Assembly (NCBI RefSeq): GCF_013114835.1
Contig: NZ_JAAVLW010000001.1
Coordinates: 310,001 to 374,000 of the forward strand
Source: Bradyrhizobium archetypum
GTDB lineage: Bacteria; Pseudomonadota; Alphaproteobacteria; Rhizobiales; Xanthobacteraceae
Direction: 5' to 3'
DNA length: 64,000 nt
Every line of letters begins with the position of its first letter. The stretch's first letter is position 1. Below are positions 13,166 to 30,736 of this stretch, one piece after another. Both the position numbers and the translations under genes were made by a program. Under the pieces are notes generated by a model that was not told the origin of the DNA, did not search any database, and saw only the letters and a list, made by a program, of their open reading frames with translations.

Positions 13166-13339
13166 CGGCGAGTCGATCTTTTGGTTCTCAGTCTTACTTA
13201 TTGGCGGGGGCCCTTCGGAAGTGGCAGCAAGAACCTCGAGATCCGCGGGCATGACTACGATCGGATCCGCCAGCCTATGCGAAGTACGTGGAACGCAGGG
13301 AAGATCGACTGTCTGATCCTCGAATGTAACGCGGATCAC
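13127..13339 (-). CDS. Small frame coupled to the Fic gene
   Basis: A GTG at 13339 overlaps the Fic stop codon (GTGA) and opens 70 codons: VIRVTFEDQTVDLPCVPRTSH... followed by low-complexity sequence. Stop-start overlap suggests translational coupling. The end of the frame runs into the broken gene at 12864-13165, so the original protein may be truncated. No family recognised. Confidence 0.3.
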   Translation of the reverse strand: MIRVTFEDQTVDLPCVPRTSHRLADPIVVMPADLEVLAATSEGPPPISKTENQKIDSPSLGPSRGQALEM

Positions 13340-14577: not shown

Positions 14578-14580
14578 GGA

Positions 14581-14623
14581 AACCCAAAATAAACGTGGTA
14601 TTTTCCTATTTATATTTTGGGTT
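14581..14623. promoter_or_regulatory. Perfect 11-bp inverted repeat before the Fic gene
   Basis: AACCCAAAATA (14581-14591) and its exact complement TATTTTGGGTT (14613-14623) are separated by 21 bp and lie 3 to 46 bp upstream of the Fic start codon. The spacing of two turns and the winged helix in Fic suggest an operator. A hairpin in the leader RNA is an alternative. Confidence 0.65.
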
Positions 14624-14727
14624 CCTGCAAAAAGCCACAACAGGCTGCGGTCGCGAAGGCGCTTGTTTTGGCTTTTCGAAAGTTTCAGCCGGGCTCTGTT
14701 CCCGATACGTTCCACAAACGAAGGGTT

Positions 14728-14748
14728 GATTATATACTTGACACCACA
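14728..14748 (+). repeat. Left terminal inverted repeat
   Basis: 21 bp (GATTATATACTTGACA..., to 14748) identical to the reverse complement of 17700-17720. It contains TTGACA followed after 17 bp by TAGTAA, a poor match of the promoter seen at the other end. Confidence 0.85.
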
Positions 14749-14846
14749 GGATAAAGATCCTAGTAATGCTGCCGCTTCCGGTGATTTGTCGCCGGGAGCT
14801 GGCGCGCCCGAACTAATCTTTATTGCTCCGAATGAGGTGGGTCAGC

Positions 14847-15836: not shown

Positions 15837-15850
15837 GGTGGCTGTACCAA

Positions 15851-16003
15851 ATGTCTGACAAAAAAGACGACAGGCTTTCTCCTGAAGAGACCCAGGCCCG
15901 CTTTGAAGCCGCGTTACGTGGCGCAATGAAGACGCCGCATAAGCCGCTGAAGGCGAAGAAGGCAGCGAAGAAAAACAAGGCGAAGAAGAAGCCCGGCAAG
16001 TGA
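15851..16003 (+). CDS. Passenger gene: 50-residue lysine-rich protein
   Basis: MSDKKDDRLSPEETQARF... then EAALRGAMKTP and a basic tail KAKKAAKKNKAKKKPGK. The N-terminal half is a predicted helix and the tail is histone-H1-like, suggesting nucleic-acid contact. Short proteins of the form MSDKK...LSPEETQARFEAALRGA are, to my recollection, common in alphaproteobacteria. It is divergent from the neighbouring zinc-finger-like gene with 14 bp between the start codons. Confidence 0.65.
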   Translation: MSDKKDDRLSPEETQARFEAALRGAMKTPHKPLKAKKAAKKNKAKKKPGK

Positions 16004-16095
16004 GCCGGGATTCTCGTTAGCGGGGCAACGATGAGAACTATTCGTCTTAGGCTAGTTATGAACTTCGCCCGACTGCTCCGTGTGCCAGTGGAGGT

Positions 16096-16416
16096 TCAGG
16101 CCGTCTTTTTCAATCGTTGGAAAAACGAGCGCAGAACATCTGGATATTCGACTGCACCGAAGTAACAGGCCGACATGTCGCTGGGATCGAAAACAAACAG
16201 CATATCTTCGTCGGCGCTCAGACCCTTGCACGCCTTCGATGCAAAGGCATCTGTGCTGAGATCGGAGGTAATGAGAAAGAACGAGGTAGTTTCGTCCCAA
16301 TATCCACACCCTTTGGTGTGAATATTGTCGATCAGTTGCTGCCGTCGCTCGTCGTAGGTTTTGCCGTTAAGTCTTTTGTTCGCAAGACGAAACGACACGC
16401 AGTATGTGGAAGCCAT
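16096..16416 (-). CDS. Passenger gene: hypothetical 106-residue protein
   Basis: MASTYCVSFRLANKRLNGKTYDERRQ begins with a beta strand and a basic helix, then GYWDETTSFFLITSDLSTDAFASKACKGLSADEDMLFVFDPSDMSACYFGAVEYPDVL. The fold pattern (strand-helix-strand-strand-helix-strand) resembles small ferredoxin-like proteins such as those annotated SinR-like or Cas2-like, but no catalytic motif is obvious. It lies between the other cargo genes and a bidirectional terminator. A toxin or accessory role is speculation. Confidence 0.65.
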   Translation of the reverse strand: MASTYCVSFRLANKRLNGKTYDERRQQLIDNIHTKGCGYWDETTSFFLITSDLSTDAFASKACKGLSADEDMLFVFDPSDMSACYFGAVEYPDVLRSFFQRLKKTA

Positions 16417-16535
16417 TCTGGCCCCTTTCTAAATGCGGAGCCGACCTTGACTGCATAGGAGAATCTGGAGTCTACTCCAGCGGTGACTACCCCTAATAGA
16501 CCGCGACCGACCCCATAAGTTGGTTGCGGTATCGG

Positions 16536-16563
16536 AAGCCCACCCTTGCCGGGGTGGGCTTTT
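16536..16563. terminator. Strong hairpin terminator
   Basis: AAGCCCACCC and GGGTGGGCTT form a perfect 10-bp stem around TTGCCG, followed by Ts on the plus strand and preceded by As. It can end transcription from either side and separates the cargo genes from the transposase. Confidence 0.85.
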
Positions 16564-16734
16564 CCGACTCAACTTTGAGGCGATTCTCCCTTTCCAGTCC
16601 AGCGCGAGGTTCCCGTTCTGTGCGGCTTATGCACAGGCTGCCGGGTACGCCAGTATTTGACGAATTTCGGCTTTGGTTTCGGTAGTTTAGAGCGCCATTT
16701 TAGAAAGCGCCGGGCAAACTGGGACAGATCGGGT

Positions 16735-17654
16735 TTAGTTAGGCCCCCGGTACGTCAGACGCTTGCCAGCCGCGCCTTTGATGGCAAGGTCTGCCCGTTC
16801 CCCGTCGCCGATACCGAGCGCAACGCGGTTGCTGTTACGGAAGTCAAATTCTGAGAGATAGCGGTGAAGGTGCTTCTCTTTGCAGTGCTGATAGACGCCC
16901 TTCATGCCGCGCTTGAAGATCGAATAGTAACCTTCAACGGTGTTGGTTGAGATCACGTCTTCGCCTTCATAGCGGACGTATTCGTCCTTGGAGTGGTTGA
17001 CCGTGTTGTGGTCGAGGCCTTTTCCGCGATGTACTTGTAGGAATACATTTCGTCGGTCATGAGCTTGGCTTCGCGGCTCAGGTTGGCGCGAATGATCGGA
17101 AGGATTTCGCCAGCGCGAGCGCCGTCAATGTGGAAGCTGCGAGCGCCGCCGCCACGTTCAACGAGCGTCAGAACAACGTTCTTGTTGGCCCAAGCGTAAC
17201 GGCCTTTCTTCGGAGTGCCTTCAAGGCGAACGTAGAAAGTCTCGTCAACTTCGACTGCCTTGCCGCCACCGCCCATCGGAGGCAGCAAGCCGCCTGCGCG
17301 CATGGCTTCGCGAATACGATGCGTCAGGAACCACGCCGACTTGTAGGTAATGCCCAAGGCCCTGTGAAGCTGATGGGAGCTGATGCCCTTCTTGCTGGAC
17401 GCCATCAGGAAGAACGCCTGTAGCCAGACGTGCAGCTTGATATGGCTGCTTTCCATCACGCTCTTGGTGGTGACGCTGAAGTCCTTGCGGCACTCCTTGA
17501 CACGGCAGCGGTAGACGCCGGGCTTCTTGGTCAGAAAGGACTCGTTGACGGTGCCACAGTGCGGGCAAACGCGCTCAGCGCCCCAGCGGAGACCTTCGAG
17601 GTACTCGCGGGCTGCTTCGTGGCTCTGAAAGTGGGGCGCGTTGAACTGAGACAT
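16735..17654 (-). pseudogene. IS1595-family transposase, interrupted by one frameshift
   Basis: The first frame (17654 to 16953) has the zinc-ribbon start CPHCGTVNE...YRCRVKECRKDFSVTT and the DDE-type segments VEVDETFYV and LMTDEMYSYK. At about 17016-17024, in a GCCTTTT tract, the frame shifts. The correct continuation (GLDHNTVNHSKDEYVRYEGED then VISTNTVEGYYSIFKRGMKG) is in another frame ending at 16735. One lost base explains it. If repaired the protein would be about 305 residues, normal for the family. A sequencing error in the tract cannot be excluded. Confidence 0.88.
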
Positions 17655-17681
17655 GGTGCCAAATCCCTAGTGAATGCGGCG

Positions 17682-17710
17682 ATTCTAGGGATTGGGCCTT
17701 GTGGTGTCAA
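17682..17710 (-). promoter_or_regulatory. Transposase promoter inside the terminal repeat
   Basis: On the minus strand TTGACA (17710-17705) and TAGAAT (17687-17682) are 17 bp apart, a near-consensus sigma-70 promoter, starting within the terminal repeat and reading toward the transposase ATG at 17654. Confidence 0.7.
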
Positions 17711-17720
17711 GTATATAATC
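17700..17720 (-). repeat. Right terminal inverted repeat
   Basis: 21 bp exactly complementary to 14728-14748. The sequences diverge immediately outside. Confidence 0.85.
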
Positions 17721-17766
17721 GCCTTTCCCGGAGCTACACACGCGTCCAGTGAGGATCGGCGGATGG

Positions 17767-20004
17767 TCAGCGCAAAGTCTTGGCGATTGCCGTGGCCGTG
17801 CCAACGAACTGCCCGTTCTGAAGTGCCCACTGCTTCTGAGCGAGCGCCTGCGGCACGAAGTCCTGAAACTTCCCTGAGCGTACGTTCTTCACGAAAGCTG
17901 CGACGTCCATAGGATCGAGCGCGGACATGCAGCCGAGTTTCTCGAGAATGGGAACCATCTGCGCCGGCGTGGTCTCGGGCACGGTCACTCCCAAATCGTG
18001 GACACCGCACTCCAAGCCGGCCATTCCGAGCGCAGCGCTGAAGACGGCCGTCGTCTGCGAGCCCCTCCAGACGAAGAGGTGGAGGTCGCGCTCTTCCTGG
18101 ATGAGGGAGCGCCGATCGAGGTCGAGCGCCCGAAAGGTATCGCGCCCTTCGGCCAACAGTTCTTGGGCTGCCTTGTCCAGGTATTCCGGAACATCGTTGT
18201 CGAGGTAGACCGCCCTCATCTCGGCCAACAATCGGTCGTGCGCGGCCTCACCGTGAGATGGCTCGAACCGCGGCACCATGCCTCCCGGATGCGGAGCGAC
18301 CGACAGGACCTTTCCGGCCTCGTCGACGTCGAGAACGATCCACCGTTGCCCGGCGAAGACCACCAGGCTGTCCTTGTGAACCGGGAACGAGATCGGGAGA
18401 GTGCCGAGCGTGCGCCCGGCCGCGGTGAGATGCCATTCCTCCGAACTCTCGAACACAGCGAAGAAATCGCGCGACTGCACGATCTTCTCGCCCTCCGAAC
18501 CGAGCATCAGGACGCCGTCTGGCGCCTGTTCTAACATCCGGACCTCACCGGATCCCAGATGACGCAGCAGCTGCGCGAAGTCCGCCGTATCGATCGAGTT
18601 GAACGGTCCCGGCCCGCACAGCAGATCGAACAACGGCTTCGGACGGATGCCGCCCCGTTCGGCGATGACGGACAGAACTTGATGGATCAGCGTGGAGGTC
18701 GTTTCCGGGCTGGGCGCAGCAGGCTCGACGAACCCAGCCAGCAGCAAGCGGACCACAGCCACCGACCGGATAGTATTCGGACGCAATTGGTCGAGGATCC
18801 CCGACTTGACGTCGACGTAGGGCTCGCGAACGTACACGCGTAGGATCGACGGGGTCCCGCGCCGCCGACCAGTTCGGCCGAGACGTTGTCGCAGCGACGA
18901 AAGAGAGCGAGGCGCGCCGACCTGGGCGACCGATTTGACGGAGCCGATGTCGACGCCAAGCTCGAGGGTGGACGTACATACCGCCGTCGTCGGCAGGCTT
19001 CCGTCCTTCAGCCGAATCTCGAGATCCTCTCGGAGAACCTTCGAAAGACTACCGTGATGAGGATAGAACTCATTCGAAACGCCCGCTTTCTCGCATCGAC
19101 GCCTAAGACGGTCAGCGGCCGACTCCACGGTTCGCCGAGACCCGCCGAAGACCAGATTGTTCGTGCCGCGCAAGGTCGAGAATAGATGGTCACAGATCGC
19201 GTCCAGCGCGATGCGCTTAGGCGGATGAGCGTCTTGGCTGCCTCCTTCCGCATGATCGGGATCGTCGAGATCCGGCGGCTCGACGTAGCCACGTATCTGG
19301 AGCCGCAACTCTGGAGAATCCGCCTTCGCGACGAGAAGTTCGACATTTTGCGGGGCCGACGGACGAAGCCAGACCGTAGCTTGGGTCAGATCACCGATGG
19401 TAGCCGACAATCCGACTCTGCGGGCTGGCTTCTGAGCCATCGCGTCGATGCGCTTGAGGAGGCTGGCCACATGCAGGCCGCGCGGCCCCTGCAGGAAGGC
19501 GTGGAGCTCGTCGACGACGATGAAGTCGGCCGATCCGAAAAGGCGCGCCGCATCGCCAGGGCGCCGCGTCAACATCGCCTCGATCGACTCGGGGGTTATC
19601 AGCGCGATGCCGGAAGGCTTCGCGATGGCCTTTCTCTTCTCGGCCTGGGAGGCGTCCCCGTGCCATTTGACGACAGGGATCTCCATCGCTTCGCAGAGCT
19701 CGTCCAACCGCCGAAATTGATCGTTGATCAACGCTTTCAGAGGACTGACGTAGATCGCAGAGAATCCGCCGCCCTTCCTTTCCGCGATCAAGGTCAGGAT
19801 CGGCAGGAACGCCGCCTCGGTCTTTCCAGCCGCGGTCGCAGCCGCAATTACGACGTCTCCTGACCCATCGAGAATGGCCCCGATGGCTCTTGCCTGAACC
19901 TCGCGAAGCTCGTCCCAGCCCTGCTCGCGAATCCAGCGCCGAATCTTTGGATGGAGCCGATCATAGGCGCCTTCAGCTACCGATGCGGAGATTGGTGAGC
20001 TCAT
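17767..20004 (-). CDS. Lhr-like DEAD/DEAH superfamily 2 helicase
   Basis: About 745 residues. The start MSSPISASVAEGAYDRLHP (20004) is preferred and overlaps the ATPase gene by 32 bp. Motifs run in order: Q-like region ELREVQARAIGAIL, motif I AATAAGKTEA, Ia YVSPLKALINDQ, II VDELHAF, III GLSATIG, IV-V region HHGSLSKVLRE and TSTLELGVDIG, and VI QRLGRTGRRRG. After the two RecA domains comes a long C-terminal region as in Lhr-type helicases. It is the last gene of the TerB-ATPase-helicase operon. Helicases of this kind (BrxHII-like) accompany BrxD-type ATPases in some BREX loci. Role here presumably nucleic-acid remodelling in defence, by inference. Confidence 0.87.
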   Translation of the reverse strand: MSSPISASVAEGAYDRLHPKIRRWIREQGWDELREVQARAIGAILDGSGDVVIAAATAAGKTEAAFLPILTLIAERKGGGFSAIYVSPLKALINDQFRRLDELCEAMEIPVVKWHGDASQAEKRKAIAKPSGIALITPESIEAMLTRRPGDAARLFGSADFIVVDELHAFLQGPRGLHVASLLKRIDAMAQKPARRVGLSATIGDLTQATVWLRPSAPQNVELLVAKADSPELRLQIRGYVEPPDLDDPDHAEGGSQDAHPPKRIALDAICDHLFSTLRGTNNLVFGGSRRTVESAADRLRRRCEKAGVSNEFYPHHGSLSKVLREDLEIRLKDGSLPTTAVCTSTLELGVDIGSVKSVAQVGAPRSLSSLRQRLGRTGRRRGTPSILRVYVREPYVDVKSGILDQLRPNTIRSVAVVRLLLAGFVEPAAPSPETTSTLIHQVLSVIAERGGIRPKPLFDLLCGPGPFNSIDTADFAQLLRHLGSGEVRMLEQAPDGVLMLGSEGEKIVQSRDFFAVFESSEEWHLTAAGRTLGTLPISFPVHKDSLVVFAGQRWIVLDVDEAGKVLSVAPHPGGMVPRFEPSHGEAAHDRLLAEMRAVYLDNDVPEYLDKAAQELLAEGRDTFRALDLDRRSLIQEERDLHLFVWRGSQTTAVFSAALGMAGLECGVHDLGVTVPETTPAQMVPILEKLGCMSALDPMDVAAFVKNVRSGKFQDFVPQALAQKQWALQNGQFVGTATAIAKTLR

Positions 20005-21307
20005 CGCCCTCCCCTTCCGCAGGCTGCGACGACTCCTCCGTGACGGCGATATCCGGCGCATCGGGCGCGATCTGGATCTCGCCGATCAGGTCCTGCCAGC
20101 GTGCTCCCGGATTCTGTTCGAGAACGGCGAGCATCTGCACGAATGCACGGACGGTGGTGCGCGGAGTCCTGAAATACGCCTCTCCGATGCGGCGATTGCA
20201 GTGATCCATGAAGGCGGTCAAGGCGTCGTCCGGCACCAGGAACTTCGCAGGGTCACCGCCAGCGAAGACGTTCCGGATGTTGGACAGAAGGATGAGAAGA
20301 TCTTCCGGTGTGAGGCTCTGCAGCCGGATGACCGGACCGCTGTAGTCGACCAGACCGTTCGCCGCAAAACGGTTTTCGGACAGGCGCGATTGCAGCGCTT
20401 CGTAACTGTACAGGCCGCGCCGCGTGTCGAGGAGGAATTCCGGTGTCCCGCACATCATGAAGCCGATGCCGGTGGTATTGCCCTGCAGGGCGTCGTTCAC
20501 AATGCGAAGGATTTCCTCGAAGTTCTGATTGCGAGCCTGGGAATTCTGCAGCTTGTAGATGTTGACCATCTCATCGAACATCACGATCAGGCCGGCATAT
20601 CCTGCCAGCCGCGTCAGACAGGCGAGAGACTTCAATGAATCGTAGACGTTGTCGTCGTCGATGATGGTCCGCACCCCTAGCGCCTGGCGGGCTTCCGTCT
20701 TTGTCGAGAACTCCCCTCGGAGCCACCTCAGGGCCGAGGTTTTCAACGTCTCGTCGGAATGCTCGCTGCCGCGCCAATAGGCCTTCAGCACGACGGCGAA
20801 ATCGTATCCCCCGACGAAATCCTGAATGGGAGCGAGCTTCTGATCGATCACGGTCTCGACCGAAAGCTGCCGATCGGCGGCCTCCTTAACGGAGTCCGTG
20901 ACCAGCCTCTCGATTACCGCACCCAGCGCGCCGCCGTCCGGCTTAGTGCGAGTGGCCATATTGCGAATGGCCTCGGAGTACAGCGCCCGCGCCTGTCCGC
21001 CGCCCGCGTGGATGCGTCTATCCGGCGCAAGATCGGCGTGGACGGTGACGCACTTCCGCTCCAACGCGATGAGACGGATCAGGTTCGCGAAGAACGTCTT
21101 GCCGGCACCGTATTCGCCGATGATGAAGCGAACGCCGGCGCCGCCGTCGGAGATCCGTTCGATGTCGCGAACCAGCGCGGTGATCTCCGCCGCGCGGCCG
21201 ACCTGGATGTGCGGCAGCCCTATGCGTGGCACAACGCCGGCGGCGAGCGCCTGGATGATGGTGTCCCGGTCCTTCGCTTTGATCGGGCGTGCAGTGGATG
21301 GATTCAT
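19973..21307 (-). CDS. BrxD/DUF2791-like P-loop ATPase
   Basis: 444 residues. Walker A is GEYGAGKT (64-71), and Walker B is GLIVMFDEMVNI around residue 240. The later segments LSENRFAANGLVDYSGPVIRLQSLTPEDLLILL and YFRTPRTTVRAFVQML are typical of DUF2791 (BrxD) proteins. Its ATG overlaps the TerB-protein stop by 4 bp and its 3' end overlaps the helicase gene, so all three are one translational unit. In BREX types that carry BrxD the partner is also a large helicase, but here the core BREX genes are absent. Partner is therefore likely the TerB-domain protein. Confidence 0.86.
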   Translation of the reverse strand: MNPSTARPIKAKDRDTIIQALAAGVVPRIGLPHIQVGRAAEITALVRDIERISDGGAGVRFIIGEYGAGKTFFANLIRLIALERKCVTVHADLAPDRRIHAGGGQARALYSEAIRNMATRTKPDGGALGAVIERLVTDSVKEAADRQLSVETVIDQKLAPIQDFVGGYDFAVVLKAYWRGSEHSDETLKTSALRWLRGEFSTKTEARQALGVRTIIDDDNVYDSLKSLACLTRLAGYAGLIVMFDEMVNIYKLQNSQARNQNFEEILRIVNDALQGNTTGIGFMMCGTPEFLLDTRRGLYSYEALQSRLSENRFAANGLVDYSGPVIRLQSLTPEDLLILLSNIRNVFAGGDPAKFLVPDDALTAFMDHCNRRIGEAYFRTPRTTVRAFVQMLAVLEQNPGARWQDLIGEIQIAPDAPDIAVTEESSQPAEGEGDELTNLRIGS

Positions 21308-23697
21308 GCCGCTTCTCTCAGTTCAGCCAGCCTGTTGCGCAGGTGCTCTACCATGACGACGTCCTCGCCGTCCTCGATGATTGCCTCCTCGAACCGGTCA
21401 AAGGCCCAATCGTTGATCCGTTCGATGGCCCCGTCCGGCAGCAGCTTGAGGTCCTTCGCGCGCTGCTCGAACTCCGCCCTCGGCAGGGATCCCTTAATTT
21501 CGAGGAGCTCGACCAATTCGGCATGGGCGGCGTCGAGCCCATCCAGCGAGCCGGTGGTGCCGGAGACGGCGGGGGATGATTCGGGCGGCGATGGCCCGTC
21601 TTCTTCGAAAATATTCGCTAGGAGAGCCGAAACCGTTTGGGTCTCGCGTTGCGTTCGTGCAAGCCGGGCGGCATCTATGCGGATCGTCGATGCTGCCGCC
21701 GACTGCGCCTGCGCCTTGGCCGTCTCGGCCGGAGTGGGCGTCTCCTCCGAGACGGGGATCGGTACCCCCTCGGCACGGGCTTCTTGTGAGATGGCAACGG
21801 GCTCGTCGGCTGCCTGGGTTGGACTTGCGCGATGCAAGGCGGAATACACCCGTTCCTTCGGAAGACCGAGCGCCTTATGGAGCCGCTCCAGAAAGCGCAC
21901 TTCGCTCGAATCCACGTTCTCGTTGCCAGCGATGATCGCTAGTGCGGCATCGGCGATGATCGTGCGCTCCTCTGGGCTGCGCTCGCCCAGCTTGCGCATT
22001 ACCCGGTCCTGCTTGGGCGGACTGTTGAACACGGTCGCGGCGTAGGCGATCAGCCGTGCCTGCTCGATCGGGGATAGATCCGAGGCGTCTCGAACTCCTG
22101 CGACTACCCGCTTCAACTCGTCGGCGGAGGCATCGCCGTCAGCGGCCGCGGCCAAGACGGCCACCTCGACCTGAGCCCTCACGGCTCTGTAGCAGGATCG
22201 GTCAGGATCGACCTTTCCGCCGCCATCCGCTTTGAAGATGATCACCTGATCCTCGAGTTGAGGGACGCCGCTCCCATAGCGGCGATCCGGCTCTATCGCG
22301 ATGTCGATACGGTCCAGAGCCGAGCCGAGCTGATCGGCAAGCGTGGACGTGACTTTCCCGTTCGCCGGCATGTCGAAGCCCGCCGCCTCCAGCATGTTGC
22401 GCATCTTCGTGCTGGCGCGTTTGTGTTCGCCCATCGAGCGGTGCATCTTCTGGCCAAAGAGGTGAATGCGGCCATCCGCAGGGTCTCGTTGCAGCGGCTC
22501 CGGCAACAAAAGCGCGGCCTGCATAGACTCGCGGGAGTCGGGACGCCTTCCGACGAAGCGACTGAAGCTGTCGAGTTCGTCCGTGCACTCCTGAACGATC
22601 CTCTTCAGATTGGCCGGCCCCTTTACCGAAGTCTGGCAAATGTCCGGATATCTCTCGTGACTACCCGCTATGGGAACCTCGAACGCGCCGCTCGCAGCCT
22701 TGTAGCTGAGGCGGATGTTGCCCGTTGCTCGAAGCGCAAGGCCGCTGGGATAGCGCTCGTTGAACCGATGGCGGAAGAGCCGCTCGAATTCCTCGAAGCA
22801 CCGGACTGCGGGCGTCCGAAGATAGACGTCCGGAATTGCAAGCGCCCACAGCAAGGCGTCGTGGGGGCCGAGCGCTCCATCCTGCTGAAGCGCCCGCCCG
22901 AGGTGCAGTCGGATCGCGACATCCAGTTCCGAGGTGACTGTCCGCTCCGGGGAAGGAGTTGGCGGCGAGATCGGAATCCCGGCGGCTATTCTGGCATAGC
23001 TCAAAAAGCGCGTGGCATAGCCGCGGAAGGAGTTGTTGTCCGCGTAGACAGTCAGCAGCCGCTCCACTTCCTGAATGAGAGCAGGCAACGACGCAAGATT
23101 CGTCTCGATGAAGGCGCGGTGCTCCAGACCGTAGAAAAAAAGGAACACGTGTCCAACGCCGTAAGCTCGGCTGTTGCGCCCTTCGGCCATCCAGTTCAGG
23201 AAGCCGCGGCGGGCGGCAGGAGTAATGGCGGCATAGGACGGCCAATAGGGCATCGAACTTCCTTCGACGTCAGGCCGAGTTGCGCTCGCGGAGAGCTTCG
23301 GATTGATCGCGTACTGATCAGTCGAGCGCCGGTCGTCCAACTGCGCGAAATCGCCCAGATAGAACAACCCGCCCTGGATCTGCGCGCCCTGCACGACCAC
23401 AGTTTCTGAAGGATCAACCCACCGCGCTGGAGCCCGCTTTGCTGCCTGCCGGTTCATCGGCGCGACGACTGAACCCTGGTCGCTCTGCGCCGGCAACGGC
23501 GGGGGAGCTTTGCCCGAAGACAGCGCCCGCGCCCCTATCGACCAGATCAGGAGTAGCACCCCCACAACAATTGCAAACCCTGCGATGGCGGCGCCATTTT
23601 GCAGGACGAAGTGATACGCCGCGCTCAGGGCCCAAAAAACGAGACCCAAAACGATCAATAGGCCCATTCCCGCCGAATTATTGCTACGTCGCCCCAT
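21304..23697 (-). CDS. Membrane-anchored TerB_N-TerB-TerB_C domain protein
   Basis: 797 residues. Two hydrophobic helices near the N-terminus (about 10-30 and 36-55) anchor it in the membrane. A TerB_N-like region follows (WVDPSETVVVQGAQIQGGLFYLGDF; YGLEHRAFIE). A TerB helical core lies at about 510-630 (VRAQVEVAVLAAAADGDASADELKRVV, then DAALAIIAGNENVDSSEVRFLERLHKALG), with acidic metal-binding-like repeats. After an Ala/Pro-rich linker comes a TerB_C-like end (LPRAEFEQRAKDLKLLPDGAIERINDWAFDRFEEAIIEDG). It opens the second defence operon, 251 bp after jetD. TerB-type proteins are linked to membrane-associated stress and anti-phage systems. Confidence 0.84.
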   Translation of the reverse strand: MGRRSNNSAGMGLLIVLGLVFWALSAAYHFVLQNGAAIAGFAIVVGVLLLIWSIGARALSSGKAPPPLPAQSDQGSVVAPMNRQAAKRAPARWVDPSETVVVQGAQIQGGLFYLGDFAQLDDRRSTDQYAINPKLSASATRPDVEGSSMPYWPSYAAITPAARRGFLNWMAEGRNSRAYGVGHVFLFFYGLEHRAFIETNLASLPALIQEVERLLTVYADNNSFRGYATRFLSYARIAAGIPISPPTPSPERTVTSELDVAIRLHLGRALQQDGALGPHDALLWALAIPDVYLRTPAVRCFEEFERLFRHRFNERYPSGLALRATGNIRLSYKAASGAFEVPIAGSHERYPDICQTSVKGPANLKRIVQECTDELDSFSRFVGRRPDSRESMQAALLLPEPLQRDPADGRIHLFGQKMHRSMGEHKRASTKMRNMLEAAGFDMPANGKVTSTLADQLGSALDRIDIAIEPDRRYGSGVPQLEDQVIIFKADGGGKVDPDRSCYRAVRAQVEVAVLAAAADGDASADELKRVVAGVRDASDLSPIEQARLIAYAATVFNSPPKQDRVMRKLGERSPEERTIIADAALAIIAGNENVDSSEVRFLERLHKALGLPKERVYSALHRASPTQAADEPVAISQEARAEGVPIPVSEETPTPAETAKAQAQSAAASTIRIDAARLARTQRETQTVSALLANIFEEDGPSPPESSPAVSGTTGSLDGLDAAHAELVELLEIKGSLPRAEFEQRAKDLKLLPDGAIERINDWAFDRFEEAIIEDGEDVVMVEHLRNRLAELREAA

Positions 23698-23947
23698 CGC
23701 TCAGCTTCGTGATAAATGCAGGCACCGATCAATGGGCGCCGTTATTACAAGACCGTCCCATGGAGTTGCCGATCGTCGCAAGCGCAATCGAGAAACTCCA
23801 CTGCCGTTTCCACCTGTTTTGAAGGCCTGTGCGTTATATGACTTTGACTTCATAAGAAGATTAGGCGCGAAGGATCGGCCGTCCTGCCCCAAAACCGTTT
23901 CCTTTCCATCTGCACACCTGCTCCCCCTGCGCCTGTTTTCCTGGCGC

Positions 23948-25156
23948 TCAGCCTAGGCCGTGATCCGCAGCTGGCACGACGGACCGCGGCTCCAGCGCCT
24001 CCTGCTCCAGGTGGCGCACATCGGATCCAAACGCCAGCCAGTCAGCCAAATTGCGGATAGCGCTTTCGGATCTCGCGATCGACCCTAGGCTCGGTTCCGG
24101 ATCGGCCGGCTGCCCGGCCTTCTCGGCCAGCTCCTTGGTCATCAGGTGCGGCTGCGGCCCACGCGGCAAGTTTTCCTCCAAATACCTGAAAATCCGCAGA
24201 CCGCCGGCATCTACATCGCCCCAGTGAAGGAACGGCACCTCGGCGGGCACGGTCAGCAGAACCTTCGACAGGAGCTCGATGACTCCCGCCGCCGGGAAAC
24301 CGCCGGTGTAGACGACCAGGCTGCCGTCCTCGATCTCGCGAACCTGCCGATTGAAACTCGCGTAGTTCTCGATCGTCAGGACGGCCGTCGGCCGCACCAA
24401 GACCGATAGCTGCGAGAGCATCTCCGGATGGATTGATGCGAACGGCTTGGCGCGACCGTCGACCACGCGGCCACTGGCCCCGTCCACGACAATAGGCCCT
24501 TTCAGATGAACAGGGTGGCTGAAACGCTCCAGGCCGATGTGCGCCCAGACTACGTCCGCCGCTGCACCGGGCTGCCCGATCTGGACGCCGAGAACGGCGG
24601 CGAGCCGCGAAGCGTGCCGATCGAACGCCTTCGTGTCGTTCGTCGCCTTTTGGGAGAAGGTTCGCGCGTCCAGTCCTTTGGCCTCCTGCCGCGAGATGGA
24701 CGCCAACAGCGTGAAGAACTCCTTGGCGGCATCGGCCTGGCCGGCCGCCAGGCGATAGGCGGGCTCGTTGCGGGTCCACCTAGCCGTCATTTCATCCAAT
24801 AGGCCGACCACCCACGGCTCACCGGCCGTAGCGACCGGAAGCAGCTCGTTCCGGACGCGCTGCGCGGTCGCTGGCGCCGGCGGACGCCCCAGGTGTCTGG
24901 CCAGCAGTTCAGGATCGCGCACGCGAACCCGCTCGATCAGATGGCTCCGGTCTCTCTTGCCCCGCAGCAGTTCGACGGCGCCGAACCTCTCCGCCGCCGC
25001 CATCTGATCGTGGAAGCGGCTAACCTGCTGCGCGGTCGATAGCCTGTCGTACTCCGGAGCCGCGGAAGCCGGCCGGGAGCGATCAGGGTTGCGCTCGCTC
25101 CGCTCCAGCAGCCGGTCAAGGAATTCGACGGCATCCGGTGTACGAACGTCGGTCAT
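23948..25156 (-). CDS. jetD: Wadjet protein JetD (TOPRIM nuclease subunit)
   Basis: 402 residues. The C-terminal half carries the Toprim-like nuclease typical of JetD (DUF2220): the glutamate in LTIENYASFN and the acidic pair in HWGDVDAGGLRIFRYLE. JetD cuts plasmid DNA after the JetABC condensin recognises small circular DNA. The N-terminal half (DUF3322-like) includes LDRLLERSERN and RVRDPELLARHLGRPP. The start overlaps the jetC stop (ATGA). Last gene of the Wadjet operon. Confidence 0.92.
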   Translation of the reverse strand: MTDVRTPDAVEFLDRLLERSERNPDRSRPASAAPEYDRLSTAQQVSRFHDQMAAAERFGAVELLRGKRDRSHLIERVRVRDPELLARHLGRPPAPATAQRVRNELLPVATAGEPWVVGLLDEMTARWTRNEPAYRLAAGQADAAKEFFTLLASISRQEAKGLDARTFSQKATNDTKAFDRHASRLAAVLGVQIGQPGAAADVVWAHIGLERFSHPVHLKGPIVVDGASGRVVDGRAKPFASIHPEMLSQLSVLVRPTAVLTIENYASFNRQVREIEDGSLVVYTGGFPAAGVIELLSKVLLTVPAEVPFLHWGDVDAGGLRIFRYLEENLPRGPQPHLMTKELAEKAGQPADPEPSLGSIARSESAIRNLADWLAFGSDVRHLEQEALEPRSVVPAADHGLG

Positions 25157-28100
25157 TCCGCCGCCTGGTCCTGGGGGATGACCGCAGCCTTCTCGACAGC
25201 AATCAGCTCGGATTTGAACACGTCGAAGCCCTTCCGGTATGGGTCGATCGCAACGATCGCGTCGCGGGCCTTCTCGGTCAGGAATTCAGTGTCGATCATC
25301 ACCTGGTTGCCGAGCCGGTTCACATTTACGACGGTGTCGACCACTTCCATGAACACGTGACGCTTTTCGTCGGGGGTGGCCAGCATGACCTGGAGCCCGA
25401 GATCCCGCATGAATTCCGAGCACTGACCGATCGCCTTCGTGTCCAGTCGATTGAAGGCCTCGTCGAAGATGGCGAGCGACAGTCCGCTCTCGCCGGTGCG
25501 CCGGTTCTGGTACGTGGCGGCCAACGAGGCACCGATGGCGATGTAGAAGGGCAACTGGCCTTCACCACCGGATCCCGTGCCCGCACGGCTCGTCAGCGAC
25601 GATCGGATCTTGCCTTCGGCATCCTGGATGTAGAGTTCGAAATTGAAATACTTGCGCGGGTCCTCGATATCCTCGGTCCGCGCCTCCACATTCGACAGGA
25701 TCTCCTCGATCTGGCGAACCGCCCGGATCATGGGAGAGTTCGCGTCGCCGCTGCGATCCCCGAAGAGAGACAGATTGAACTCTGACTTCCTGGATTCCTC
25801 GACGAGCTCGATCATGTCGACATGGGTCGGGGCCTCCAGCGCCTTGAACGAGTAGTAGTCGCGCCCGTGGAACTGACGATCCTTGAGGTGACGATTGAGC
25901 TCGTTCAGGGTGGCCTTAATGCCGGTGAAGGCGTCGTCGAGGCGATGCAGGAGATCATCGCGGAATGCCGAGGTCATCTCGGTCGCGGCATTCCGGCACT
26001 GCTCCTCGTATTGGACCAGTTCATGTGTCTCGAGGCGCTGCTTTTCCGCCGCGGCCCACTTCTCAACGGCCGCCGGCGTCGCTTCTTCAGCCGTGAATGG
26101 CGGCACGACATGGAATTCCTGACCATGCTTGTTCATTGCGCCGGTCATTTCGCGCATGAGACTCGAGCGGCGATCCGTCGAGCGGCGATCCCGATCGGCC
26201 ACGAAGCCAGCGATGAGGTTTTGTATAGATTCAGTGGCGATCGCAGGGACCTGCCCCCGGTACTCGCGCATGGCCGTCGACTGCGGAAAGCTATCCCGCA
26301 TCTGGCGCGCGCGACCGCGCCGGACCGACGACAAGTGGTCGCGGTTCTCCTTCACATAGATTTCGTATGCGCCCTCGGCGCGGTCCCGCGCCGTTTGTGC
26401 CCCGTTGAAGGTCACTTGAGTCGTGTTTTTCAGCCGGGCGGCCGTCCCCGCTTCAGACCGCAGACGATCTCGCTCTGATATGAGCTTGGGATCGCGATTG
26501 CGCCGGGCATCCTCGATGTTCTTCTCGGCGTCCGAGATCTTGCGATCGAATTCGACCAGCGTAGCGCCGCACGACAAGCAGCTCAGGCCCGCGCCCTGTA
26601 CTTTCTGGAATTGCGCGAACATGCCCTCGAAGAGACGGGCCTCTTCTTCCAGGCGCCCAATCTCACGAGCCTGTTCGGCGAGCTTGAGCTCGAGCTCTTG
26701 CCGCTCGGTCTGAAGTTGCTGGCGCATCTGGGCCTGCGTGGCGCGACCGAGTTTCAGGTACTCCGGCTTAGGAAGTCGCCGGACCGTCCTGCCGCCCTGC
26801 ATCATGCGATCTGGCGTAATGGCGTTCTCAGCGGCGACCATCCTGTCCATGGTCTCCACCATCATCAGTCGGCCGAGGCGATAGTTCAGGAAGGCCCGCG
26901 CGTGCCGGTTTTCCGTGCTGATGATCTGCGCCAGCGAGCCCTTTTCGGCCGGCCTGGTACTGTCAGTCTTCGTCGTGTTGATGACCTCAGCGTGCTGGAA
27001 CGAATACTCCCCGCCTTCCCGATAGATTTCGAGGGCGCGGACCGCCCGATTAGGCTCAACGATCAGCGCCTCCCGGGACCGCCCCAGTACGGCTTCGGCC
27101 GCCATCCGCCACTTGTCGTCGCGGATTTCCACCAGATCGCACAATGGTTCAGCTTCGATGCCATGCGAACGAAGCTGGTCGATCAGCTCCCGCGTGCCAC
27201 GCTCGATGGCGCTCAGTCCCTGGTCCATTCGCTTGAGATTGCTGTTGATCTGATCAATGCGATCCTGAAGATCCTTGGTCGCGACACGGGCGTTGAAATG
27301 GACATCCGAGAATGTCTTGCGGACCGCCGCGAGCCGTTCCTGATCGACCGCGGCAAGCGCCGCATCCAGATGCGAAGCGCTATCCTTCCAGTCCTCCGAG
27401 AGCGTCTTGTCCCATTCGGAAAGTGGCGCTCTTCCCCGAGCGACCACGACTGCACTCAGCAGCGCATGCAGCAGATCGTCCCGGCGAACCAGCAGATTGC
27501 GCTCAACGGCCCTTTTTATCGAGGCGATGAGCCCATCGATCTCGTTGACCGGTGCCATTGCATTGGCGCGCTGACCCACGGTGAAATTCTTGTCCGATTC
27601 ATACATTTGGGCGAGTTGTTCGCCGTCACTGGTGTTGATCGACAACTCGACGGCCTTGAGCTCCGTTTCGAGCGTCGAGTGCCGGGTCGACGCAGCGACG
27701 GCTTCCACTTCCGCCTTTGCAGCGGCGCTCTTGAGCTGCGCAATGTTCTCTTCCTGACGTCGCGCATCCCGCCGGAACTTCTCCCACTCAAGGCGGGCAA
27801 TCTGCCAATTGGTGACCGCGATAACTCGTTCGTTTTCGACGGCGCGGCCGACGATGCGGAGGATTCCGGCGAAGCTCGCGCTCTGCGCCCTCAATTCCTC
27901 GATACGGCGGGTCAGCGAACGCCAATGTTCGATCCCGCGCCGAAGCCTATCGACCTGGAGGGGCTGAACATCGAGAACGTAGTTCCGGATAAAGTCCGTG
28001 GGATTGTCCACTGGTTTCAGCAGCAGCGCGTTCCGGAATGCCTTCTGAAAGCGCCTCGGGTCGAGCGGGAAGCCCGCCGGCGACAAGGCCCGGAGCGATT

Positions 28101-28653
28101 CCGCCACGAAGTCGGTCGCGCTGGAGAACGCGTCGTCGACTTCGATATTCCGGGCCCGCAACGCGGTGCGCACCGCATGCCACTGCAGCGTCTCGACCTC
28201 ATCGTCGCCAACCGCAGCGAGGATGTCTTCCTTCGTCATCGCGCACCTGGCAATGAAGCGCGCCTCGCAGGACTCGTCGCTTCTCGATGCCGATGCCGAA
28301 AAAGCCACGCCCAAGCTCACTGTGGAGCCGTCGTTCAGGTCTTCGAAAACCAGGATGACGTAGGTGTAGGCATGCTGCCTGGTCGGCTCCGACCGCTCGC
28401 CCTTCTCATCGAGCGAGACCACGCCGAGGCAGTAGTCGCGCAGCGTCCGCTTACTCCTGACGTTGCTCTGGGCGCTCGGATTGAACCGGATGCTGGCCAT
28501 ACTTGCGCCGGAGAGCACGGTCTGAACGGCGTCGATGATCGCCGATTTCCCCGCCCCATTCGGGCCGATGATCGCGGTCATGCCGCGCATGTCGACCTGC
28601 TGCGCCCGGAACAGATACCAGTCGACCAGGATGATACGACGGAGTTCGATCAC
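25153..28653 (-). CDS. jetC: Wadjet protein JetC (SMC/MukB-like ATPase)
   Basis: 1166 residues with the SMC plan. Walker A is GPNGAGKS at 30-37. A long coiled coil leads to a hinge-like globular region (about 500-640, AVLGRSREALIVEPNRAVRALEIY...). A returning coil follows, then the ABC signature GSGGEGQLPFYIAIG and Walker B LSLAIFDEAFNRLD near the C-terminus. A CxxC (CLSCGATL, about residue 690) sits at the start of the returning coil. JetC extrudes DNA loops with JetA and JetB to sense plasmid topology. Overlaps jetB and jetD by 4 bp each. Intact in frame. Confidence 0.95.
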   Translation of the reverse strand: MIELRRIILVDWYLFRAQQVDMRGMTAIIGPNGAGKSAIIDAVQTVLSGASMASIRFNPSAQSNVRSKRTLRDYCLGVVSLDEKGERSEPTRQHAYTYVILVFEDLNDGSTVSLGVAFSASASRSDESCEARFIARCAMTKEDILAAVGDDEVETLQWHAVRTALRARNIEVDDAFSSATDFVAESLRALSPAGFPLDPRRFQKAFRNALLLKPVDNPTDFIRNYVLDVQPLQVDRLRRGIEHWRSLTRRIEELRAQSASFAGILRIVGRAVENERVIAVTNWQIARLEWEKFRRDARRQEENIAQLKSAAAKAEVEAVAASTRHSTLETELKAVELSINTSDGEQLAQMYESDKNFTVGQRANAMAPVNEIDGLIASIKRAVERNLLVRRDDLLHALLSAVVVARGRAPLSEWDKTLSEDWKDSASHLDAALAAVDQERLAAVRKTFSDVHFNARVATKDLQDRIDQINSNLKRMDQGLSAIERGTRELIDQLRSHGIEAEPLCDLVEIRDDKWRMAAEAVLGRSREALIVEPNRAVRALEIYREGGEYSFQHAEVINTTKTDSTRPAEKGSLAQIISTENRHARAFLNYRLGRLMMVETMDRMVAAENAITPDRMMQGGRTVRRLPKPEYLKLGRATQAQMRQQLQTERQELELKLAEQAREIGRLEEEARLFEGMFAQFQKVQGAGLSCLSCGATLVEFDRKISDAEKNIEDARRNRDPKLISERDRLRSEAGTAARLKNTTQVTFNGAQTARDRAEGAYEIYVKENRDHLSSVRRGRARQMRDSFPQSTAMREYRGQVPAIATESIQNLIAGFVADRDRRSTDRRSSLMREMTGAMNKHGQEFHVVPPFTAEEATPAAVEKWAAAEKQRLETHELVQYEEQCRNAATEMTSAFRDDLLHRLDDAFTGIKATLNELNRHLKDRQFHGRDYYSFKALEAPTHVDMIELVEESRKSEFNLSLFGDRSGDANSPMIRAVRQIEEILSNVEARTEDIEDPRKYFNFELYIQDAEGKIRSSLTSRAGTGSGGEGQLPFYIAIGASLAATYQNRRTGESGLSLAIFDEAFNRLDTKAIGQCSEFMRDLGLQVMLATPDEKRHVFMEVVDTVVNVNRLGNQVMIDTEFLTEKARDAIVAIDPYRKGFDVFKSELIAVEKAAVIPQDQAAE

Positions 28654-29291
28654 GCCTGCACCTCGCTCGTGGCGTCGGTCTTTGCCGTCGCCGCGGCCGA
28701 GCGCGAGACGAACTCTTCGAGGGAGCCGAGCGTGTCCTTGGAGACCACGATCGGCAACGCGGGCCGCAGGAACAGGGTAAAGTTCCTGTCGTCCCGATCC
28801 TCGATCCTCACGAGGCCGCGCTGCCTGAAGCCGGCCAGGATTTCCTTTACCCGCCCGAAGTTAGGCCGCTCGCGATGGGTCCGGTCCTCGTAGATCTGCA
28901 GGATCTGCTCGCTCTCGACCTCCACCTCGCCGAATTCCTTGGCCTCGAACCGCGTGAACGCCTCCTCGTAATGGAGCCGCAGCACCAGCAGGAGCAGGCT
29001 TTCGTCGAGTTTCATGCTCTGACGGGGAGGCAGTTCGTTCGCCACCAGGCCGACGTATCCGTCGTTCGGCCTGCCTACGACGCGGTAACCCAGGGCGTCG
29101 AACAGGTTCTCGAAGTAGCCCATGTAGCGGCGGAGCACCTCGAAGGAGGTCTTCATGCCCCAGTCGTTTTCGTAGATGAACTGGGCGCGCCAGAGCGACT
29201 GCGCGGCCTGGCGCAACTCCTTCTGCAACCGGTCGCCGTCGCCGCCCTCGGAATCCTCGTCGTCGATCAGTTTGGAAAGATCACGCAGCAT
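28650..29291 (-). CDS. jetB: Wadjet protein JetB (kleisin-associated/MukE-like subunit)
   Basis: About 213 residues from the ATG at 29291 (MLRDLSKLIDDED). The body is a tandem winged-helix type protein: RAQFIYENDWGMKTSFEVLRRYMGYFENLFDALGYRVV, then LDESLLLLVLRLHYEEAFTRF and GRVKEILAGFRQRGLVRIED. JetB is the MukE-like partner bridging JetA and JetC. The frame continues upstream to 29405, but that part overlaps jetA and is proline/serine-rich shadow. It overlaps jetA by 11 bp and jetC by 4 bp. Confidence 0.9.
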   Translation of the reverse strand: MLRDLSKLIDDEDSEGGDGDRLQKELRQAAQSLWRAQFIYENDWGMKTSFEVLRRYMGYFENLFDALGYRVVGRPNDGYVGLVANELPPRQSMKLDESLLLLVLRLHYEEAFTRFEAKEFGEVEVESEQILQIYEDRTHRERPNFGRVKEILAGFRQRGLVRIEDRDDRNFTLFLRPALPIVVSKDTLGSLEEFVSRSAAATAKTDATSEVQA

Positions 29292-30699
29292 CGGCGGAGG
29301 TCCTCGTTCTCTCGATGCGGAAGGCGGTAACGTCGATCCAGTCGTTAGCGGTGCGCTCCTCCTCGAGCGTGATGGTGAATTCGCCCAACCGCACGGAGCG
29401 ACCAACCGCCGCCAGGTTCGGCAGGGCCCGGTAAGCGAACAGATCCGGGATGCTTTCTATCTCGATCTCCGCGGACGACACGGCATCGCGGCCTTGCATC
29501 TGCCGGCGAGCAAACTCGAGCAGCTTCTGGTCGGACACCCGCACCATCCGGTCGAACTCGGTCGTGGCCTGGACATAGGCTCGCAGATAGGGATCCTGCT
29601 TCGGTACCTTGAAGCGGGTCCGCTCCGGAGGAGCCTTCGGCGGCGGCGGGGTGTATAGCGCGAGGGACGTGATCGGCAGACCGACATCCGGCGACCTCAG
29701 ACGGATCTCGACCTCGTCGCTGCCGATCTTCGAGAGCTGCTCGATCAACCGCACGATCCGCTCGGCGGACCCTTCTCCCATGACGTCCATGTAGTGGACC
29801 GTAGTGCGGATGCGGCGTTCGAGGCGATCGCGGAAGTCCTCGATCTTGTCCATGAACGGTCCGACGTCCTCGAATACGCTCTTAATCTTTTCGAGCTCCG
29901 CGACGACGCGCTCCTCGGCCGTGGCGATCGTGGCGCCCGGAGCCATGACACCCTGCTCGATGTAGGCGCGTGCGATCTTGCCGAGCAGCGCGGCATCCGC
30001 GAGCATGTCGCCCGCGAGCGATGCGATCGTGCGGCGATGACGGTAGGGGTTGTTGGACGTCTTGAGTTGCTTGTAGTCAGCGATCAGCAGCCCGTCGACA
30101 AAGTCCTGGAAGAAAGTGCGGAGGATGGCCGCCGCGTTTGGATTGCCCAGAATGCGGTCCTCGATCTCGCGCATGCCGGCGAGGATCCGGCGCATGCTGC
30201 GGGCGAACCGCAGGGCCGTGTCGTGCGCGTTGGCCAGACCTTGGGCCATGGTCTCCGGCTCGCGGTTCGCGGCCTCAAGGTTGTTCTTGACGTCGACAAC
30301 GGCTCCGGCGACGCGCACCCGGCTGTTGCCGAAGTCGGTGATCGCGCCCAGGACCATGAACGCGTCCGGATTCATGTCGACGTAGGTGCGCCACTTCTCG
30401 GTCTCTTCTGTGAGCCAACCGGTGTCGCGCAGTCGATAGTAGGCAAGGTAATGAGCTTGGCTCGTGGTCTGATCTTCCTCAGGGTCGCCCTCGGAAAGCT
30501 CGCCCATCGATCCGATGCCGAACTCCGAGAGGCCGATTTCGATCTGCTTCACGACCTCTTCCCTGAGCGGCGTCTCGAGGATCCGTGCCGAATAGACCCT
30601 CTCGTAGAGACGCATCAGCAGGCGCGCGTAGACGTGCTTCTTCGGCCCCGATAGAGGCTTGAAGAGGGTCTCCGGAAGATAACCAAACAGCTTCATCAT
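29281..30699 (-). CDS. jetA: Wadjet protein JetA (kleisin-like), type II appearance
   Basis: 472 residues starting MMKLFGYLPETLFKPLSGPKKHVYARLLMRLYE, matching the MKLF..LP..F..L.S.....Y...L..LY opening of the type II JetA family (formerly DUF5716). Helical regions around 190-300 (VDVKNNLEAANREPETMAQGL..., EERVVAELEKIKSVFEDVGPFMDKIEDF) fit a kleisin. First gene of the operon, so jetABCD is complete and in canonical order. Promoter should lie in 30700-30740, just downstream of a broken RHH gene. Confidence 0.9.
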   Translation of the reverse strand: MMKLFGYLPETLFKPLSGPKKHVYARLLMRLYERVYSARILETPLREEVVKQIEIGLSEFGIGSMGELSEGDPEEDQTTSQAHYLAYYRLRDTGWLTEETEKWRTYVDMNPDAFMVLGAITDFGNSRVRVAGAVVDVKNNLEAANREPETMAQGLANAHDTALRFARSMRRILAGMREIEDRILGNPNAAAILRTFFQDFVDGLLIADYKQLKTSNNPYRHRRTIASLAGDMLADAALLGKIARAYIEQGVMAPGATIATAEERVVAELEKIKSVFEDVGPFMDKIEDFRDRLERRIRTTVHYMDVMGEGSAERIVRLIEQLSKIGSDEVEIRLRSPDVGLPITSLALYTPPPPKAPPERTRFKVPKQDPYLRAYVQATTEFDRMVRVSDQKLLEFARRQMQGRDAVSSAEIEIESIPDLFAYRALPNLAAVGRSVRLGEFTITLEEERTANDWIDVTAFRIERTRTSADAA

Positions 30700-30736
30700 C
30701 GGTCCTTGAGCCGATGGATTGAACCGTTACGCTCCT

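What the first reader, a model, noticed from the sequence alone, without database searches (positions are those of the whole stretch)
17767..30699. Complete Wadjet operon directly followed by a TerB / BrxD-like ATPase / Lhr-like helicase operon
Seven co-directional genes in two tightly overlapping units: jetA-jetB-jetC-jetD (overlaps of 4-11 bp) and, after a 251-bp gap, TerB-domain membrane protein, P-loop ATPase and superfamily 2 helicase (overlaps of 4 and 32 bp). Wadjet is an established anti-plasmid system. The second trio combines parts known separately from BREX (BrxD, BrxHII) and Ter-type stress systems but without any BREX core gene. Their fixed neighbourhood raises the idea that the trio is a stand-alone defence module or a partner of Wadjet, for example for membrane-associated or linear DNA that Wadjet misses.
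Basis: partly seen in the sequence, partly recalled or inferred. Interest (0 to 1): 0.85.

Follow-up and report, generated by a model that had tools for sequence, protein, structure and literature searches.

The report
Wadjet and Shango defence systems back-to-back
Two already published bacterial defence systems, Wadjet (predicted to cut small invading plasmids) and Shango (predicted to stop phages), sit back to back on what is likely a mobile DNA island in a Bradyrhizobium-like soil bacterium; close relatives carry either one without the other, so they probably work independently.

Summary
Seven co-directional genes lie at 17767-30699 (minus strand). The first four match Wadjet type I models (JetA1-JetD1); the last three match SngA, SngB and SngC of Shango (E 4e-88, 6.5e-176, 4e-254). 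So the "unnamed trio" is a published anti-phage system (PMC10250203) and the main novelty claim fails. Behind it, past an IS-like insertion, lies a SoFic-type gene, a third known system. The pairing is real but confined to one lineage: JetD lies within 4 kb of SngB in 8 of 56 Shango genomes, all in the window's genus; type I restriction is within 10 kb on the same contig in 0 of 56. Nine genus genomes carry the same Wadjet without Shango, the sequence changing in the last ~40 bp of jetD; Pycsar-type, Qat or OLD-like genes follow in five. One genome carries the same Shango without Wadjet. Each module looks broken in some relatives, and Shango is frequent on conjugative plasmids. This fits modular assembly of a defence island better than an obligate Wadjet-Shango machine. 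Cooperation is not excluded: JetC trees need three gains or losses of the Shango link.

The parts
29281..30699 (-). jetA (Wadjet type I kleisin-like subunit), 472 aa
   Evidence: PADLOC JetA1 8e-169; Pfam JetA
28650..29291 (-). jetB (Wadjet KITE/MukE-like subunit, DUF4194), 213 aa
   Evidence: PADLOC JetB1 1.7e-67; start supported by 6 of 7 relatives
25153..28653 (-). jetC (Wadjet SMC/MukB-like ATPase), 1166 aa, Walker A GPNGAGKS at residue 30
   Evidence: PADLOC JetC1 1.4e-216; PDB JetC chains 8dk1, 9qxt, 8as8, 8dk2; motif
23948..25156 (-). jetD (Wadjet nuclease, DUF3322 plus JetD_C/Toprim), 402 aa, HWGDVDAGG at 311-319
   Evidence: PADLOC JetD1 1e-144; Pfam JetD_C; motif
23698..23947 (-). 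250-bp gap that holds the junction of the two modules: Wadjet homology to Shango-less relatives ends in the last ~40 bp of jetD; Shango homology to the Wadjet-less G567 begins at about 23790
21304..23697 (-). sngA (Shango TerB_N-TerB-TerB_C protein with two predicted N-terminal membrane helices), 797 aa
   Evidence: PADLOC SngA 4e-88; Pfam; hydropathy; AlphaFold2 model mean pLDDT 81.8; Foldseek best hits 2h5n, none with E below 0.001
19973..21307 (-). sngB (Shango P-loop ATPase, BrxC/BrxD family), 444 aa, GEYGAGKT at 64, IVMFDE at 241
   Evidence: PADLOC SngB 6.5e-176 against BrxD 8e-47; motifs
17767..20004 (-). sngC (Shango Lhr-like SF2 helicase), 745 aa (764 aa if it starts at 20061); motifs AATAAGKTEA, VDELH, SAT, RLGRTGR
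   Evidence: PADLOC SngC 4e-254 against BrxHI/BrxHII 9e-125
14728..17720 (.). insertion between sngC and the SoFic gene with 21-bp perfect terminal inverted repeats; IS1595-family transposase frame 17654-16953 plus a 359-aa frame 15926-14847 without a family; not at this place in the relatives compared
13336..14715 (-). SoFic-type gene (Fic protein, HPFRDGNGR motif), third defence gene of the island in 6 of the 8 Wadjet-Shango loci
   Evidence: PADLOC SoFic 5.3e-79, NCBIfam SoFic 97 bits, below its cut-off of 550
34146..35711 (-). tyrosine integrase; likely the integrase of the island, since homology to G419 (B. lablabi) stops at 35753 while synteny with five other relatives continues beyond it

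Best explanation
The locus is a complete type I Wadjet operon (jetABCD) followed by a complete Shango operon (sngABC), likely two independent defence systems joined end to end by recombination on what is probably an integrase-bearing island in Bradyrhizobium. Wadjet is predicted to work as published: the JetABC SMC complex extrudes DNA loops, recognises small circular DNA, and JetD cuts it. Shango is predicted to act against phages: the ATPase SngB and the helicase SngC would work on phage DNA, and the TerB protein SngA, likely held at the membrane, would tether or sense; these roles are inferred from domains, and I found none established for any Shango. The two modules come from separate stocks: the same Wadjet exists without Shango and the same Shango exists without Wadjet. 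The joined piece then moved as a unit and mixed with other Wadjet copies by homologous recombination (inferred). Carrying both would give additive cover against plasmids and phages; the SoFic-type gene would add a third layer.
For: Family assignments. Shango is published as a three-gene TerB/ATPase/helicase anti-phage system (PMC10250203, passages). Nine genus genomes have this Wadjet (JetA 88-97%, JetC 77-92% identical to the window, where present) without Shango, homology stopping in the last ~40 bp of jetD. What follows: PycC cyclases plus an E2-domain gene (scanned in L101; L100 and L102 show the same frames), qatABCD (L107), an OLD-like gene (L106), a Hsp70/TPR/AAA set (L105), no PADLOC match in the frames scanned (L104, 7 frames; L109, 4 frames), contig end (L103). 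G567 has this Shango (SngB 94.8%) and no JetD_C match, homology starting about 93 bp before sngA. G469 shares 17764-31009 (82.9% of bases) and a weaker 282-bp stretch up to 31295 with the window, but not the flanks beyond. Separate decay: jetC split in G419, jetD split in G446, sngA and sngB broken in G513. dS against the window jumps along the block, e.g. L091 jetC 0.67, jetD 0.40, sngA 0.09. SngB relatives are on 695 of 72,556 plasmid records, 545 of them conjugative; of 60 records spread over that list, 58 are SngB-like (54-79% identity), 1 is BrxD, 1 a fragment.
Against: The pair is tighter than chance: 8 of 56 Shango genomes have JetD within 4 kb, against 0 of 56 for type I restriction within 10 kb on the same contig. 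In the genus, strong JetD and Shango co-occur more than expected (8 seen, 2.2 expected, Fisher p 3e-4; not corrected for kinship). The JetC tree forces at least three changes of the Shango link and the JetA tree at least two, so repeated recruitment, hence selection for the pair, is possible. All seven genes have dN/dS 0.02-0.14 against G469. Wadjet also decays where Shango was never seen: jetA looks split in L101 and L102, and jetA and jetB are gone in L107. No activity of these copies was measured.
Confidence: 0.85

Rival explanations
1. Cooperative unit: in this lineage Shango and Wadjet act together, e.g. Shango opens or stalls invading DNA and feeds circular or membrane-bound forms to Wadjet, and the pair is selected as one seven-gene cassette.
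For: The pair occurs as one block in an unrelated setting in G469; linkage well above that of type I restriction; the JetC tree allows up to three gains; Shango and Wadjet are also among the commonest systems of Pseudomonas PAPI-2 islands (PMC12629846, passage).
Against: Same Wadjet without Shango in 9 genomes and same Shango without Wadjet in 1; 0 of 27 Shango genomes outside the genus have JetD near SngB; in some relatives one module looks broken while the other is open.
Confidence: 0.1
2. The trio is a BREX offshoot (BrxD plus BrxHII) with BREX-like chemistry.
For: BrxC_BrxD Pfam 507 bits; BrxHI/BrxHII PADLOC match 9e-125; SngC, BrxHI, DruE and DpdJ form one helicase clade (PMC12278908, passages).
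Against: Sng models score far better; NCBIfam BrxD below cut-off; no PglZ, BrxC or PglX among the 13 neighbouring proteins scanned; a TerB protein is present instead.
Confidence: 0.03
3. Mere hitchhiking: the adjacency is chance in one island, with no benefit of carrying both.
For: One lineage only; what follows jetD is variable.
Against: Both operons are open in the window and show low dN/dS against G469; the pair is kept in several species and in at least three settings.
Confidence: 0.2

Closest known systems
Shango (SngABC), E. coli and Pseudomonas aeruginosa PA14
   Same: Three genes with TerB, ATPase (BrxC/D family) and DEAD/DEAH helicase; PADLOC SngA, SngB and SngC models match (SngA 27-526 of 528, SngB 4-426 of 439, SngC 4-710 of 720)
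   Different: SngA is longer (797 aa) with two N-terminal membrane helices, also seen in the Afipia, Nitrobacter and Bradyrhizobium loci but not in all Shango loci; sits behind Wadjet
Wadjet type I (JetABCD)
   Same: All four genes and their order; JetA1-JetD1 models
   Different: Followed by Shango; the last dozen or so residues of JetD differ from Shango-less relatives
Pseudomonas PAPI-2 islands
   Same: Shango, SoFic and Wadjet are among their most abundant systems (PMC12629846, passage)
   Different: Other host, other island; adjacency there not examined
BREX proteins BrxD and BrxHII
   Same: Homologous ATPase and helicase
   Different: No BREX core gene among the neighbours scanned; lower scores than Sng models

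Membership tests
Wadjet type I | jetA, jetB, jetC, jetD in one operon in this order | tested here: met
Wadjet type I | SMC-type ATPase JetC with Walker A and SbcC-type Walker B region; Toprim acidic residues in JetD | tested here: met
   GPNGAGKS and SbcC_Walker_B; DVDAGG and JetD_C (that these motifs are catalytic is recalled)
Wadjet type I | Restriction of small circular plasmids, not linear DNA | not testable with these tools
   Published for other Wadjets (PMC10586767 passages)
Shango | Three-gene operon SngA (TerB), SngB (ATPase), SngC (helicase) | tested here: met
Shango | ATPase and helicase motifs present | tested here: met
   (meaning of the motifs recalled)
Shango | Protection against phages | not testable with these tools
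   Shown for PA14 Shango (PMC10250203 passages)
BREX | BREX core genes (PglZ, BrxC, PglX) in the locus | tested here: not met
   None among the 13 proteins between 13336 and 37218 that were scanned
BREX | SngB passes the curated BrxD cut-off | tested here: not met
   157.5 bits, cut-off 350
SoFic | Fic motif and SoFic model match | tested here: inconclusive
   PADLOC 264 bits and HPFRDGNGR present; NCBIfam 97.4 bits, cut-off 550
Wadjet-Shango partnership | Wadjet and Shango linked wherever this lineage occurs | tested here: not met
   9 Wadjet loci without Shango, 1 Shango without Wadjet

The most novel reading that the evidence does not exclude
The 3' end of jetD is a docking point: Bradyrhizobium Wadjet operons repeatedly pick up a second, complementary defence module (Shango, Pycsar-type, Qat, OLD-like) directly behind jetD by homologous recombination, and the Wadjet-Shango form is a selected seven-gene unit that covers circular plasmids and phages together.
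Probability: 0.12. Interest if true: 0.6.

Novelty: new member of a known kind. Interest (0 to 1): 0.28.

Why it matters
It turns an apparently new defence trio into a known one and answers the question of a fixed Wadjet partner with counts. What remains useful is a natural series in one genus (Wadjet alone, Shango alone, both joined, either one broken) with mapped module borders, good for testing whether an anti-plasmid and an anti-phage system add up or cooperate. That Shango is frequent on conjugative plasmids bears on how plasmids may protect their hosts from phages.

Tried and rejected
Rejected: the trio as a new system (matches SngABC); the trio as BREX; a transfer RNA attachment site (ARAGORN found none in the window). 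The attachment repeat of the island was not found and not pursued. A hidden nuclease in SngA was sought by AlphaFold2 and Foldseek: no match with E below 0.001, best 2h5n. A wider Shango gene set with an AddAB-like nuclease-helicase pair: present behind sngC in L097/L111 and L120, and in L119 as far as its end shows; remnants in two relatives; not general among the 31 named loci. JetD and SngB against the PDB by sequence: no match.

Rows dropped before counting: 7 of 27 genomes with weak SngB (20-90 bits), 2 of 31 (88 and 110 bits, BrxD-like), 12 of 24 weak (under 130 bits), 4 already counted, 8 kept. Partial or split SngB hits (G278, G439, G442, G451, G513, G638) were kept. From the 10 strong-JetD genomes without Shango, one (G444, L108) was set aside as a distant Wadjet (JetC 25%). 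Limits: JetD_C may miss very divergent Wadjets; where JetD or HsdR lie on other contigs than SngB the distance is unknown; 12 of the 26 named loci without Jet genes hold under 20 kb; a weak SoFic-model hit (38 bits) lies about 8 kb from SngB in G852 and was not counted. The two plasmid searches used different E limits and proteins of different conservation, and the plasmid list is dominated by clinical Klebsiella and Salmonella records, many alike, so the counts are not numbers of independent events.
Full report
Observation. PADLOC gives JetA1 (8e-169), JetB1 (1.7e-67), JetC1 (1.4e-216), JetD1 (1e-144), then SngA (4.2e-88), SngB (6.5e-176) and SngC (4e-254). Pfam agrees: JetA, DUF4194, SbcC_Walker_B and SMC hinge, DUF3322 plus JetD_C, TerB_N/TerB/TerB_C, BrxC_BrxD, DEAD/Helicase_C. 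Nucleotide-binding and other motifs are present in JetC, JetD, SngB and SngC (their meaning is recalled). jetB most likely starts at 29291; for sngC 20004 and 20061 are both possible.

Identity of the trio. It is Shango. PMC10250203 (passages) describes a three-gene TerB, ATPase and helicase system in P. aeruginosa PA14 that lowers plating of many, not all, phages tested 10-100 fold, and says it was also reported from E. coli (that other paper, Millman et al. by recall, is not held). In the searches made I found no mechanism in print for Shango (listings; PMC10855318 lists it under unknown, passage). The helicase SngC groups with BrxHI, DruE and DpdJ (PMC12278908, passages). The structure model of SngA (mean pLDDT 81.8) shows two N-terminal helices where hydropathy predicts membrane spans; Foldseek best matches are 2h5n, a protein of unknown function (that it is TerB-like is recalled), and weak winged-helix regulators, none with E below 0.001. 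This suggests, but does not show, a membrane-anchored sensor or scaffold rather than a nuclease.

Neighbours. Behind sngC lies an insertion (14728-17720) with 21-bp perfect terminal inverted repeats and an IS1595-type transposase frame, then a SoFic-type gene (13336-14715). L002, L003, L004 and L030 have this gene in the same place without the insertion; L005 lacks the gene. Upstream lies a tyrosine integrase (34146-35711). The sequence right of it is syntenic with five relatives (G446, G489, G508, G433, G513), but in G419 homology ends at 35753, as expected of an element border at a different site.

How often are the two linked? SngB models were searched in 397 genomes of the order, 242 of the genus and 398 of the phylum. 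After weak BrxD-like hits were dropped, 56 genomes carry Shango: own plus 19 others of the order sample, 28 more from the genus sample, 8 more from the phylum sample. Outside the genus it is 0 of 27. Eight further Shango genomes have a JetD_C match elsewhere (G001, G439, G442, G451, G466, G475, G586, G617), mostly on other contigs; in G617 a distant Wadjet lies about 13-20 kb from Shango. Control: type I restriction HSDR_N occurs in 24 of 56 but within 10 kb of SngB on the same contig in 0. The SoFic gene of the island (263-266 bits) is next to Shango in 6 of 56, all among the 8. A second set of 31 named loci, partly the same genomes, gives Jet genes in 5, all Bradyrhizobium with SngB 96-98% identical, and in 0 of the other 26, of which 12 hold under 20 kb. 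In the genus, Shango is in 29 and strong JetD in 18 of 242, both in 8 against 2.2 expected (Fisher p 3e-4; any JetD: 76 of 242, both 15 against 9.1, p 0.018; not corrected for kinship).

Borders and history. Ten genus genomes have strong JetD (over 80 bits) without SngB. Nine of the ten carry the window's Wadjet type. Aligned to the window, they match until the last ~40 bp of jetD and then stop. What follows: PycC cyclases with an E2-domain gene in L101 (same frames in L100 and L102, which are near-identical), qatABCD in L107 (jetA and jetB missing, only the second half of jetC found), an OLD-like gene 2.6 kb on in L106, a Hsp70/TPR/AAA set in L105, no PADLOC match among 7 frames of L104 and 4 of L109, contig end in L103. 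jetA looks split in L101 and L102. In the other direction, G567 has this Shango without Jet genes, matching the window from 23790 to 17766. The 250-bp gap is found in all Wadjet-Shango loci (74% identity over 175 columns in L097); in the stand-alone Shango loci held at that point it was not found, and G567 shares only its last ~93 bp. G469 shares 17764-31009 with the window (82.9% of bases) plus a 282-bp stretch at 31016-31295 (70%), and has other flanks. So the two modules have separate origins, one junction, and a later life as a movable block (the order of events is inferred).

Recombination and decay. dS against the window varies strongly along the block (L095: jetA 0.22, jetD 0.03, sngB 0.20; L091: jetC 0.67 over its first 689-aa frame, sngA 0.09; L093: jetC 0.004, sngB 0.17). 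The JetC tree (16 rows) forces at least three changes of the Shango-linked label, with L104 next to the window group and L106 next to L091/L092; the JetA tree (14 rows) forces two; the SngB tree (12 rows, 4 of them unlinked) keeps the linked ones together with only G567 among them, the linked ones forming one side of a branch in 34% of bootstrap trees. Three gains, or one gain and two losses, both fit. jetC is split in G419, jetD in G446, sngA and sngB in G513 (the first two are drafts, so sequencing error is possible). Against G469 all seven genes have dN/dS 0.02-0.14.

Plasmids. SngB relatives are on 695 of 72,556 plasmid records, 545 of these conjugative, 452 in Klebsiella. Of 60 records spread over the whole ranking, 58 are SngB-like (54-79% identity), one is annotated BrxD (25%) and one is a fragment. 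Many are near-identical clinical plasmids, so this is not a count of independent events. The window's JetC matches 6 records at E 1e-30, none over 80% of its length, all on replicons of 315 kb or more. Limits and conservation differ, so only the direction is informative: Shango travels on plasmids freely, which does not suggest an anti-plasmid partner of Wadjet.

Verdict. Two known systems side by side, plus a third, on an island. Searches for print on the pairing: Shango with Wadjet and co-occur gave 4 papers, of which I saw passages of two; Wadjet with Bradyrhizobium gave 1 paper on Paenarthrobacter (listing); a wider search gave 33, of which 25 were listed. PMC12629846 (passage) names Shango, SoFic and Wadjet among the commonest systems of PAPI-2 islands, so joint carriage is known, though tight adjacency was not described in what I saw. 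Shown here: gene identity, borders, counts. Inferred: function, additive benefit, route of recombination.

Noticed in passing
L100-L102, L105-L107 (behind jetD): Relatives of this Wadjet carry other systems directly or shortly behind jetD: PycC cyclases with an E2-domain gene, qatABCD, an OLD-like gene, and in L105 a Hsp70/TPR/AAA set of which only the AAA protein matches PADLOC (IetA, 89 bits); it may be a new module.
   Followed up: partly
L097:16575-19229 with L111, L119:16957-19611, L120:12841-18854: Behind sngC in three loci lies a PD-(D/E)XK plus UvrD pair that is AddAB-like but far below the AddA cut-off; short remnants of the first gene remain behind sngC in L003/L094 and L005/L093.
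   Followed up: partly
about 30750-30950 (minus), upstream of jetA: A small frame of about 66 aa upstream of jetA is conserved in relatives with and without Shango (intact copies exist) and is interrupted by a stop codon in the window and in L093; the copy of L097 has no Pfam match.
   Followed up: partly
14728-17720: IS1595-type element with perfect 21-bp terminal repeats carries a 359-aa frame without any Pfam or PADLOC match; the transposase frame may be split.
   Followed up: no
40198-42867: Ten register copies of a repeat with a spacing of mostly 147 bp (49 codons) inside an 889-aa frame; a similar repeat region is present in L113.
   Followed up: no
plasmid collection: Shango ATPase homologues on 695 plasmid records, 545 conjugative, 452 in Klebsiella and 144 in Salmonella.
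   Followed up: partly
L098 and L099 (G617): A distant Wadjet lies about 13-20 kb from a Shango locus, so joint carriage in one island may have arisen more than once.
   Followed up: no
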